This document shows, piece after piece, positions 29,468 to 39,945 of a DNA stretch of 64,000 bases (within the stretch, counting starts at the first letter, position 1; every line of letters starts with the position of its first letter). Source of the stretch: a virus; the IMG/VR virus record IMGVR_UViG_3300009506_000003, positions 62,001 through 126,000 of that record; one strand, given 5' to 3'. A program made the position numbers and the translations under genes. Under the pieces are notes generated by a model. That model saw only the letters and a program-made list of their open reading frames with translations, had not been told where the DNA came from and searched no databases.

Positions 29468-30379
29468 TTACGCCCGTTGCTGGACCTCGTCAAGGATGAC
29501 TCTTGCGAGCTCCGGATTCATCTCCAAGATCGCAGTCGCTTCTCCTTCTCCTCTTCCAAGGCTCTCGTCTCCCCACATGTACCAAGGACCAGCCTGCACA
29601 ATGACCCCGGCGTCACGCGCGACTCGAATGAGGTCTCGAAGAGTGTCCACTCCCGATCCTTTCACGAAGGGCAACGAGATGATCGATGCTGGCCTCGAGT
29701 AGACGTTGGCTACTACGTTCACCTGCATCGTGAACGTGTGGTCTGTGACTTCCGTTCTGCTCAGCTCCAGGCGAGTACTGAACCTGTCGATGATCTTCCG
29801 GGCAGCGGAATCGATGTCCCCGTCCACGAAGAACTTGTCGGGCTTGATGCTTCTCCGAGTCCGAATCTGGTTCGTCATCACGATGCACGACCCACGTCCC
29901 AAGAAAGGAAGCGCCACCTCCAAAAAGGTGTCCACCATCAAGTTCCATTCACCAAACTCGTCTTCCTTGGGCCGCATGGACGTAGCTGAATCGATTGCCA
30001 AGATGCAAGGCACGTCCTGGTGGAGCTCCAAGAACTTGCAGGCTCCAGCGAGTACGTCCTCCCCGTAGTTCCCTGTGATGAGGAGCAGCCGATTGAGGTC
30101 GATGTCGAAGACCCTCATGTACGGAATGTCCAAGTACTCGGTTGGGCACAAGGCCGCAGCCAACCCAGCGCGTTGAGCGGTACCGACGATCTCGTACAAC
30201 AAGGACGTCTTCCCTGCTGAAGCCGGGCCGTAGATCTCAATGGCGCCGGCAGGAAGGGCCCCACCAATCTCTCTGTCCAGGCTCACGATTCCAGTAGCGG
30301 TGCTGAAGTCCAATGCTGGAGACCGCTTCACTCCCCAAGCCTTCACGACGTCCTCGATACCCTCATCAACGATGCCCAT
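29468..30379 (-). CDS. recA: RecA/UvsX-like recombinase
   Basis: 303 aa, shorter than bacterial RecA (about 350). Walker A GPASAGKTS at residues 51-59; a Walker B strand with CILAIDSAT near 125-132; a MTNQIRTRR loop near 169-177; and GDESLGRGEGEATAILEMNP at the C-terminal end like the G-x-G-x-x-x-A region of RecA. It would carry out strand exchange in phage replication and repair. It has its own promoter of the CATAAG type facing the + operon at 30502. Confidence 0.9.
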   Translation of the reverse strand: MGIVDEGIEDVVKAWGVKRSPALDFSTATGIVSLDREIGGALPAGAIEIYGPASAGKTSLLYEIVGTAQRAGLAAALCPTEYLDIPYMRVFDIDLNRLLLITGNYGEDVLAGACKFLELHQDVPCILAIDSATSMRPKEDEFGEWNLMVDTFLEVALPFLGRGSCIVMTNQIRTRRSIKPDKFFVDGDIDSAARKIIDRFSTRLELSRTEVTDHTFTMQVNVVANVYSRPASIISLPFVKGSGVDTLRDLIRVARDAGVIVQAGPWYMWGDESLGRGEGEATAILEMNPELARVILDEVQQRA

Positions 30380-35824: not shown

Positions 35825-35842
35825 TTATGACGAAACGTGCGG
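35825..35842 (-). promoter_or_regulatory. Candidate promoter of Toprim gene
   Basis: - strand GTTTCGTCATAACCCA: the TTTCGTCATAA box of the CATAAG class, about 50 bases before the start at 35776. The GAAA element is not clear. Confidence 0.45.
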
Positions 35843-36433
35843 CAAAGTGTAAACCGACCGGAGGAACTCAGCGTCTTTCTCCGTGATCACGTACTGGTCA
35901 GGTACGGCTGCAGAGTACATCACGCTGTTCCGAATCCCGTCGTGAGCCAAGCCCAGGCAATGCCCGAGCTCGTGGCAGAAAGCCCTGCCAAGAATGGAGT
36001 CCGAGTAGGACTCCCACCCAGGCATCAAGTAGATCGCGGCTCGAGCAAGAGCGCCTTCTCCGTCGAGAGCGTACCGGGTGTAGGCCACTGCGTGCTCGTG
36101 CTCATCGAAGTCCAGAGGAGCAGGCATGATGGGAATGACGTGACCATCGGCGGGTACGTCCTGAGGGCCGGCGAAGAGCTGGAGCCCACTCTTCATATTC
36201 CAATATCGGGCGCCCTCTTTCACCGCGTCCAGAATCCTCTGCTCGCCGGCAAGGAGGTCGGTGTCTACGATGAGCATGAGGGGTGGCCAGGTGACCTTCC
36301 AAGACCTGATGTTCGGCAGGCCGAGCATGTCCAACGCATCTTTGCGTTTCTTGTCCGTGGCGATGCCGTAGATCAGGAGAACGAGGACTACCGCCCCAAA
36401 GACTGCACCCAGCACTATCCAGACGGTGTTCAT
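35825..36433 (-). CDS. Membrane-anchored metzincin metalloprotease
   Basis: 202 aa. One N-terminal membrane helix (VWIVLGAVFGAVVLVLLIYG) then a catalytic domain with HELGHCLGLAHD at residues 154-165 (H154, E155, H158, H164 as zinc ligands and base) and the Met-turn NSVMYS at 169-174. This is the matrixin/metzincin signature. With the helix as anchor the protease would face the periplasm or outside. Possible jobs are lysis, superinfection control or modification of a host surface protein. Rare in phages. Confidence 0.85.
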   Translation of the reverse strand: MNTVWIVLGAVFGAVVLVLLIYGIATDKKRKDALDMLGLPNIRSWKVTWPPLMLIVDTDLLAGEQRILDAVKEGARYWNMKSGLQLFAGPQDVPADGHVIPIMPAPLDFDEHEHAVAYTRYALDGEGALARAAIYLMPGWESYSDSILGRAFCHELGHCLGLAHDGIRNSVMYSAAVPDQYVITEKDAEFLRSVYTLPHVSS

Positions 36434-37480: not shown

Positions 37481-38113
37481 ATGTCGAATGTGAAGACGGT
37501 CCAGATGGACCCGCCGTGGCCCGAGCAGGGTGCAGGCAAGATCAAGCGTGGCGCCGACAGGCACTACAAGCTCATCAAGAGGCGAGAGGACATCTTGAAG
37601 GTCATTCTGCAGTCTGGTGTCTGGCCGGATTGGGAGAAGGACGAGAGTGCTCACCTCTACATGTGGGTCACGAACAACTACCTCGAGTGGGGACTGTGGC
37701 TCATGGATGCCTTGGGGTTCACCTACAAGACGAACGTCGTCTGGGTGAAGACCAAAGCCGACTGGCCCGACATCATCGACGAGCTCATCGACGAGAATGG
37801 TGGGCTCACTCTGAACCCGCTGACCTGGATGAAGATCTTGGCGGCGGCCATCCGTATCGGCATCGGCCAGTACTTCCGTGGCAGCCACGAGCTCTGCCTC
37901 TTCGGGGTGCGGGGCAAGGCCATGATGCCGAAGAAGGCCCTCCCTTCTGTCTTCCATGCTCCTCGAGAGAAGGGTGAGGACGGCAAGGAGAAGCACTCCA
38001 AGAAGCCGACCCGTGCGTACGAGATCATCGAGGCTACAAGCCCAGGACCTTACCTCGAGATCTTCGCACGGTCAGAACGCAAGAACTGGGCATCCTGGGG
38101 AAACGAAATCTGA
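37481..38113 (+). CDS. MT-A70 family adenine methyltransferase
   Basis: 210 aa from ATG 37481 (GGAG upstream). MDPPWPEQ at residues 9-16 holds the catalytic DPPW; SAHLYMWVTNNYLEWGLWLM and TYKTNVVWVKTK are core strands; GSHELCLFGVRGKA and ARSERKNWASWGNEI complete the MT-A70 pattern. It should methylate adenine N6 in DNA (or RNA), perhaps protecting phage DNA. It starts a run of coupled small genes leading to the tmRNA. Confidence 0.9.
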   Translation: MSNVKTVQMDPPWPEQGAGKIKRGADRHYKLIKRREDILKVILQSGVWPDWEKDESAHLYMWVTNNYLEWGLWLMDALGFTYKTNVVWVKTKADWPDIIDELIDENGGLTLNPLTWMKILAAAIRIGIGQYFRGSHELCLFGVRGKAMMPKKALPSVFHAPREKGEDGKEKHSKKPTRAYEIIEATSPGPYLEIFARSERKNWASWGNEI

Positions 38114-38798: not shown

Positions 38799-39019
38799 TG
38801 GAGACATTCCTGACACCTGTTGAGCTCACGAGGCTCGACGCCATTCGGTACGCCAAGGAGCGCACCGAGCGCGACGGCAGAACTTTCGTTGCCCGGACTG
38901 ATGGGCACAAGTTCTACGTCGTCCCTCTCTATGAGGCCGGGTCTGAAGAGCCTGGGAGGTTCCCCAAGATTGACGCTGGCTACGCAGCCATCGGAACTCT
39001 CTTGGAGGACAAGCCATGA
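38795..39019 (+). CDS. Small hypothetical protein
   Basis: 74 aa; LTRLDAIRYAKERTERDGRT then FVARTDGHKFYVVPLYEAG. A helix followed by a strand pair. ATGA coupled to both sides. Unknown. Confidence 0.65.
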   Translation: MMETFLTPVELTRLDAIRYAKERTERDGRTFVARTDGHKFYVVPLYEAGSEEPGRFPKIDAGYAAIGTLLEDKP

Positions 39020-39219
39020 GGCACTTCGTCGTCGCTCTGGACGAGGCTGGGAGCCCCATCCGGAACATGGACATCACCACTACAGATGGCGAGCCAAAAG
39101 ACTCCACAGAGGACCACCAAGAGGCCCTCACTTTTTGTGGGATGCTGAACCACTACTACGAGCACGGCGAACTGCTGGACGGCAGAGTCGTTGGCGGGTA
39201 TGAAGTGGTGTCTGAGTAG
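39016..39219 (+). CDS. Small hypothetical protein before tmRNA
   Basis: 67 aa (MRHFVVALDEAGSPIRNMDI), acidic, with a GMLNHYYEHGELLDG segment. Last coding gene before the tmRNA, eight bases upstream of its 5' end, so the tmRNA may be cut from the same transcript. Confidence 0.65.
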   Translation: MRHFVVALDEAGSPIRNMDITTTDGEPKDSTEDHQEALTFCGMLNHYYEHGELLDGRVVGGYEVVSE

Positions 39220-39226
39220 TTCACAC

Positions 39227-39588
39227 GGGCCCGACAGGTTTCGACGTGGACACGGAAGGAAGTGGGAGCGTGCCGCTGATGTATCGCAACAGCGTCAAAA
39301 AGCGATGCAACCTTCAACTGCCAACGACAACGTTGAGCAGGTCGCCCAGCGCCTCGCGGCGTAACAGCGACACCGAGAGCAGACGCCTGCTATGCTCTCG
39401 GCGCCAAAAGCAGGATGCTGTCTTCATGAGGATGTCCGTCTTCGCATGAGGGCTCAAGACCAAACGGCTGGACAAGGGGTGTCGACCTGTCGGCGGGTAC
39501 GGCGCACCGATAAAGAACACCGAATACGCACGTAGAGCTCACTCTGGAAGGTTTGCGGACCCCGGTTCGATTCCGGGCGGGTCCACCA
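39227..39588 (+). ncRNA. ssrA: tmRNA (transfer-messenger RNA)
   Basis: 362 nt. The 5' GGGCCCG pairs with CGGGTCC at 39578-39584, including the G3-U70 wobble (39229 with 39582) that alanyl-tRNA synthetase needs, followed by A and an encoded CCA. The T arm CCCGG-TTCGATT-CCGGG is at 39561-39577 and the 5' side has the conserved TTTCGAC. The tag frame starts at GCC 39320 and reads ANDNVEQVAQRLAA, then TAA at 39362, ending in the LAA that host ClpXP-type proteases see. Complete, so probably active in ribosome rescue. Confidence 0.93.
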
Positions 39589-39945
39589 TTCGAAGTTTGC
39601 TGAGGCGCATGAGAAGTCGGGTAGCAACCGGCTCGAAATCCTGGATAACCGTTGCTCTCTAAAGACGCGGCATCCCAGGCACTCAGCAATGCTCGAGGAA
39701 GTGAGATGGGCAGGCAGCGAGGGTGAGGTTCCGACCTTCGTCACTCCCAGGGCGGGAAAAGGCCAAGACCGAGAGCGAGGTGTACCTCAACACCGTTCGA
39801 GCTCCGACAAGTGACCAGACCACCAGAAGGCAAGCCCTGGCCTCGAGCCAATTCTATGGCCTGCCCCGAGGACATACTGGCGAGCGCAGCAGCGCTCGTT
39901 CGTCGCCAACCTCGGGGCGGGCCACCCTTTCATCGGAGGAATAGC
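39589..39945 (+). other. Gene-free stretch after tmRNA
   Basis: About 350 bases without a convincing gene. A D-arm-like GTCGGGTAGCAACC (about 39616) and a T-arm-like CGGCTCGAAATCCTGG (about 39633) appear but do not fold into a complete tRNA. Weak hairpins only; no T-run terminator found. May be a processed 3' trailer. Confidence 0.4.

What the first reader, a model, noticed from the sequence alone, without database searches (positions are those of the whole stretch)
39227..39588. Phage-borne tmRNA with a complete alanine-type acceptor and its own tag
Both ends pair into a 7-bp acceptor stem with the G3-U70 wobble needed for alanine charging, followed by an encoded CCA. The T arm is canonical. 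The tag frame reads ANDNVEQVAQRLAA-stop, ending in LAA. Few phages carry ssrA. A phage copy could rescue ribosomes stalled late in infection, or change how tagged phage or host proteins are degraded. No SmpB gene is seen here, so it would use the host's.
Basis: partly seen in the sequence, partly recalled or inferred. Interest (0 to 1): 0.85.

Follow-up and report, generated by a model that had tools for sequence, protein, structure and literature searches.

The report
Phage-carried tmRNA (ssrA) gene
This uncultured large bacterial virus carries a complete, well-preserved gene for tmRNA, the RNA that frees stuck ribosomes and tags the unfinished protein; other phages are already known to carry such genes, so this is a new example of a known thing in an undescribed phage lineage.

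Summary
Window 39227-39588 (+) is a complete one-piece tmRNA gene: ARAGORN calls it with exactly these ends and the tag ANDNVEQVAQRLAA*, and it matches the whole Rfam RF00023 model at 132.7 bits, E 1.1e-51. It has the 7-bp acceptor with G3-U70, an encoded CCA and a T arm, and four pseudoknots can be drawn by hand. The window lies in a 132,593-bp uncultured virus record with phage replication and tail genes and 17 tRNAs. A distant relative (G001, 202 kb; polymerase 59% identical) has a full tmRNA, 74% identical, with tag ANDDVEQLVPQLAAA*. In the acceptor, T stem and pseudoknot 1, 6 of 24 pairs changed on both sides and none broke, so the RNA looks to be under selection. No SmpB was found here or in 12 related records. 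The host is unknown, so whether the tag is the phage's "own" could not be tested; the RNA leans towards Myxococcota, where ANDNVELALAA tags occur. tmRNA in phages is known (402 of 18,146 genomes, 2.3%, PMC9004378). Verdict: real, probably functional, a new member of a known kind; interest is modest.

The parts
39227..39588 (+). one-piece tmRNA gene (ssrA), 362 nt with encoded CCA
   Evidence: ARAGORN; RF00023 132.7 bits, full model
39227..39233 (+). acceptor stem 5' strand GGGCCCG (G3 of the G3-U70 pair)
   Evidence: pairs 7/7 with 39578-39584 CGGGTCC
39578..39588 (+). acceptor stem 3' strand CGGGTCC (U70) plus encoded ACCA
39561..39577 (+). T arm CCCGG-TTCGATT-CCGGG
39274..39308 (+). pseudoknot 1 (CGCTG/CAGCG and GTATCGC/GCGATGC)
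   Evidence: 12 of 12 pairs in this sequence and in G001, with four two-sided changes between them; 4/500 shuffles
39320..39364 (+). tag reading frame, ANDNVEQVAQRLAA then TAA; resume codon GCC
   Evidence: ARAGORN coding part 94-138
39373..39415 (+). pseudoknot 2 (CCGAGAG/CTCTCGG and GCCTGCT/AGCAGGA)
   Evidence: drawn by hand; 13 of 14 pairs
39422..39460 (+). pseudoknot 3 (CTTCATG/CATGAGG and GTCTT/AAGAC)
   Evidence: drawn by hand; 12 of 12 pairs, equivalent stems with different sequence in G001
39478..39510 (+). candidate pseudoknot 4 (GGTG/CACC and TCGG/CCGA), the weakest of the four
   Evidence: drawn by hand
39202..39226 (+). 25-nt leader that aligns with the leader of the G001 tmRNA (shared AGTAGTTC); overlaps the end of the upstream gene
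   Evidence: blastn match starts 25 nt upstream of the gene; sequences printed
39016..39219 (+). short upstream gene in the same direction, ending 7 nt before the tmRNA (co-transcription inferred)
   Evidence: own gene caller; no Pfam or PHROG match

Best explanation
It is a functional, phage-encoded one-piece tmRNA. It is probably co-transcribed with the short genes just upstream, trimmed at both ends by host enzymes, charged with alanine by host AlaRS (G3-U70), and delivered by host SmpB and EF-Tu to ribosomes stalled on broken phage or host mRNAs. The ribosome switches to the tag frame, adds the tag ANDNVEQVAQRLAA (its first Ala from the charged tmRNA precedes the encoded part), stops at TAA and is released; the tagged chain ends in LAA and is expected to go to host ClpXP-type proteases. 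The benefit to the phage would be to keep ribosomes and amino acids available during lytic growth. Shown here: gene integrity, conserved structure with compensatory change, conservation in a distant relative, and no smpB found. Inferred: expression, processing, charging, use of host SmpB, tag degradation and fitness benefit.
For: Full-length RF00023 match; ARAGORN call with intact tag. A full tmRNA in relative G001 is 74% identical overall, with 6 two-sided pair changes, no one-sided change and no broken pair in the acceptor, T and PK1 stems, and G3-U70 kept. The DNA match is confined to the tmRNA and a 25-nt leader while the neighbouring genes do not match, as expected for selection on the RNA itself. 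The tag frame is kept (ANDNVEQ.../ANDDVEQ..., ending in LAA or LAAA). Precedent: the tmRNA of mycobacteriophage Wildcat is its most highly expressed lytic gene, 15-fold above the virion structural genes (PMC7474061).
Against: No expression data. No promoter or terminator pattern was found near it on its strand, though the scan covers only sigma-70-type promoters. The closest relative by polymerase among large records (G003, 192 kb, 67% identical) has no tmRNA over the cut-off, so the gene may be dispensable in this lineage. Host unknown, so compatibility with host SmpB and proteases is untested.
Confidence: 0.85

Rival explanations
1. A decoy: the phage RNA binds host SmpB, AlaRS or stalled ribosomes and inhibits host trans-translation, without productive tagging.
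For: The tRNA-like domain alone can strongly inhibit tmRNA, as discussed for phage DS6A (PMC4131195). No smpB is found in the phage.
Against: Here the mRNA-like part is also kept: an open tag frame with resume codon and stop, and PK1 conserved with compensatory changes. A decoy would not need these.
Confidence: 0.05
2. A tag switch: the main benefit is that chains get a tag different from the host's, which changes which protease or adaptor handles them.
For: The tag ANDNVEQVAQRLAA is unlike the bacterial tags seen here (Myxococcota: ANDNVELALAA, ANDNAVALAA, ADDNYALAA) in the residues before LAA, and G001 ends in LAAA.
Against: The host tag is not known. LAA at the end is kept, which argues for ordinary ClpXP recognition (established knowledge). 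Some bacterial tags are equally long and end in RLAA (ANDNVDMREVRLAA in Methylobacteriaceae MAGs).
Confidence: 0.08
3. A passenger copy of a host ssrA picked up by imprecise excision or at an integration site, not maintained by selection.
For: ssrA genes are common integration sites, as noted in PMC9004378 and PMC12656738.
Against: The gene is complete, has a diverged counterpart in G001 with six compensatory changes, and its best DNA matches to bacterial genomes in three phyla are short and mostly about 80% identical, so it is not a recent host fragment of any genome sampled. No integrase was seen among the proteins scanned (not exhaustive).
Confidence: 0.02

Closest known systems
tmRNA of relative IMGVR_UViG_3300037851_000570 (G001, 202 kb)
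   Same: one-piece tmRNA, 74% identical over aligned positions, tag ANDDVEQLVPQLAAA*, no smpB found; shared replication and tail modules
   Different: different gene neighbourhood, and opposite strand relative to the replication genes; lies 0.9 kb from tRNA-Glu genes
tmRNA genes of mycobacteriophages (Bxz1, Cali, Catera, Rizal, ScottMcG, Spud, ET08, Wildcat) and of Bacillus phage G (PMC4131195)
   Same: phage-encoded tmRNA; cluster C mycobacteriophages also carry about 30 tRNAs
   Different: a different phage lineage: no DNA match to INPHARED phages and no match of three structural proteins to it
Two-piece ssrA of methylophage Melnitz (PMC9004378)
   Same: phage-encoded tmRNA
   Different: Melnitz has a permuted two-piece RNA with an alphaproteobacterial relationship; this one is one-piece
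Myxococcota ssrA (e.g. L073, L075, L080; tag ANDNVELALAA)
   Same: one-piece, shared ANDNVE start of tag, up to ~81% identity over the 3' part
   Different: phage tag has QVAQRLAA in place of LALAA; the tree does not place the phage RNA inside Myxococcota with support

Membership tests
tmRNA (Rfam RF00023) | covariance-model score over the gathering threshold, full length | tested here: met
   132.7 bits vs 47, positions 1-374/374
tmRNA (Rfam RF00023) | tRNA-like domain with 7-bp acceptor, G3-U70, T arm, CCA | tested here: met
   7/7 and 5/5 pairs; CCA encoded
tmRNA (Rfam RF00023) | tag reading frame with Ala resume codon, hydrophobic end and stop | tested here: met
   GCC...GCGGCGTAA, ANDNVEQVAQRLAA*
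tmRNA (Rfam RF00023) | PK1 between tRNA-like domain and tag | tested here: met
   12/12 pairs in both relatives, four two-sided changes, 4/500 shuffles
tmRNA (Rfam RF00023) | PK2-PK4 downstream of tag | tested here: inconclusive
   stems drawn by hand in both relatives, not tested against a null; PK4 is weak
tmRNA (Rfam RF00023) | trimmed ~362-nt RNA, alanylation, SmpB-dependent tagging | not testable with these tools
   needs experiment
phage-encoded ssrA | lies in a phage genome, not in host flank | tested here: met
   132.6-kb virus record with phage genes and a phage-type tRNA cluster beyond the tmRNA; relatives G001, G009, G014 also carry tmRNA
two-piece (permuted) tmRNA | permuted order, RF04321/RF01849 above threshold | tested here: not met
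   RF04321 only 27.6 bits vs 47

The most novel reading that the evidence does not exclude
The phage's tag differs from its host's tag so that, during infection, rescued chains are handled by another adaptor or protease than host-tagged ones, making the phage tmRNA a reprogramming device and not just extra rescue capacity.
Probability: 0.08. Interest if true: 0.6.

Novelty: new member of a known kind. Interest (0 to 1): 0.3.

Why it matters
It adds a tmRNA from a phage lineage with no match found among cultured phages, with a diverged counterpart that shows compensatory change, i.e. evidence that selection keeps a phage tmRNA folded and its tag frame open. The function of phage tmRNA is, as far as I know, not established experimentally in most systems; sets such as G000/G001 (with tmRNA) and G003 (without) are material for that question. 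By itself it is an ordinary, well-behaved example.

Tried and rejected
Host identification: a scan of bacterial genomes for the tag-start motif gave 7 genomes (Polyangiaceae, Methylobacteriaceae, a planctomycete and others). BLAST of the tmRNA gave a match of 50 bits or more in about 20 of 284 Myxococcota genomes, 2 of 199 in the planctomycete phylum and 2 of 299 in the proteobacterial phylum (my count). That is a lean towards Myxococcota, but other phyla (e.g. Actinomycetota) could not be sampled, and the maximum-likelihood tree leaves G000+G001 unplaced. Tape-measure and helicase searches in Myxococcota genomes found no phage relative (the first try failed). Cultured-phage relatives: none by DNA or by three structural proteins; polymerase matches are under 60% identity and generic. 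Permuted tmRNA: rejected. Integration-site remnant or recent host fragment: judged unlikely as above. The literature search for these tags found nothing.

Full report
Observation. ARAGORN reports a single RNA gene in the 64-kb window, a tmRNA at 39227-39588 (+) with tag ANDNVEQVAQRLAA*. Rfam RF00023 matches the same coordinates over the full model at 132.7 bits, E 1.1e-51. The acceptor (GGGCCCG/CGGGTCC, G3-U70), the T arm and the encoded CCA are all present.

Pseudoknots. PK1 is clear: CGCTG/CAGCG and GTATCGC/GCGATGC; only 4 of 500 dinucleotide shuffles of that 50-nt stretch can make stems as long (21 of 500 for the G001 sequence). PK2, PK3 and a weak PK4 can be drawn by hand in this sequence and in its relative; those three were not tested against a null.

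Context. The window is bases 62001-126000 of a 132,593-bp virus record. The record encodes a DnaB-like helicase, primase, RecA-like proteins, uracil-DNA glycosylase, a family-A DNA polymerase (matches), a topoisomerase, a sigma factor and a tape-measure/tail-lysin-like protein, a baseplate protein, and 17 tRNAs, 16 of them in one cluster at the right end. It is a tailed phage. Relatives reach 192-202 kb, so this record is probably incomplete. It has no DNA match among 50,697 phage records for the regions tested, and three structural-region proteins have no match there either.

Relatives. The replication module is syntenic in G001 and G003 and recognisable in G009 and G014. G001 (202 kb) has a full tmRNA with tag ANDDVEQLVPQLAAA*. 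G014 and G009, much more distant, have tmRNAs with tags AENQLPIAA* and ANNTNAFAPVALAA*. G003, G012 and G018, all over 100 kb, have none over the cut-off; records may be fragments. The trait is therefore recurrent but not fixed in this group.

Selection. G000 and G001 tmRNAs are identical at 249 of 338 aligned positions. In the acceptor, T stem and PK1, 6 of 24 pairs differ on both sides, none on one side, none is broken. At DNA level the match in that neighbourhood covers only the tmRNA and a 25-nt leader. This is good evidence, from two sequences, that the folded RNA is maintained.

SmpB. No SmpB match in the record or in 12 related records including G001; the same search found SmpB in 10 of the 14 control genomes, the bacterial ones. 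The phage would have to use the host's SmpB.

Tag and host. The tag shares ANDNVE with Myxococcota tags such as ANDNVELALAA and shares its length and RLAA end with ANDNVDMREVRLAA of Methylobacteriaceae MAGs, whose tmRNA is two-piece. Another 166-kb viral contig (L064) reads ANDNVEQAAYALAA. tmRNA BLAST leans towards Myxococcota, but the tree does not resolve it. I regard the host as unknown; 'its own tag' is therefore not shown to differ from the host's.

Known background. 402 of 18,146 phage genomes (2.3%) carry ssrA (PMC9004378); mycobacteriophages such as Bxz1 and Wildcat, and Bacillus phage G, are listed cases (PMC4131195); Bradyrhizobium elkanii phages carry one (PMC12656738); the Wildcat tmRNA is its most highly expressed lytic gene (PMC7474061).

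Conclusion. A genuine, conserved, very probably functional phage tmRNA that most likely works by ordinary trans-translation with host SmpB. It is a new member of a known kind, in an uncultured phage lineage. Interest 0.3.

Noticed in passing
window 39589-39945: 357-nt stretch without a convincing gene directly after the tmRNA; folds better than shuffles (z -2.57) and holds a long near-perfect stem GGCCUGCCCCGAGG.../...CCUCGGGGCGGGCC with a second hairpin inside; no Rfam match.
   Followed up: partly
L067, L068 (Polyangiaceae MAGs) and L061:9321-9698 (322-kb viral contig): tmRNAs whose tag frame has no stop after the usual AA end and runs on (e.g. ANDNVEAEEIFAVAALQSSPRGDVSKLVAS*); long tags or a misread frame.
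   Followed up: no
L062:2252-2617 (viral contig IMGVR_UViG_3300009177_000052): two-piece (permuted) tmRNA in a viral contig, tag frame ANDNVDMAAYALAA.
   Followed up: no
L008 (record 126001-132593): cluster of 16 tRNA genes at the right end of the record, several isoacceptors each for Pro, Leu, Gln and Ser.
   Followed up: no
window 29468-30379 (-) and L004:17518-18858 (+): two different RecA-like proteins in one phage record.
   Followed up: no
window 37481-38113 (+) and 35825-36433 (-): an MT-A70-type methyltransferase domain and a small matrixin-like (M10) metallopeptidase match.
   Followed up: no
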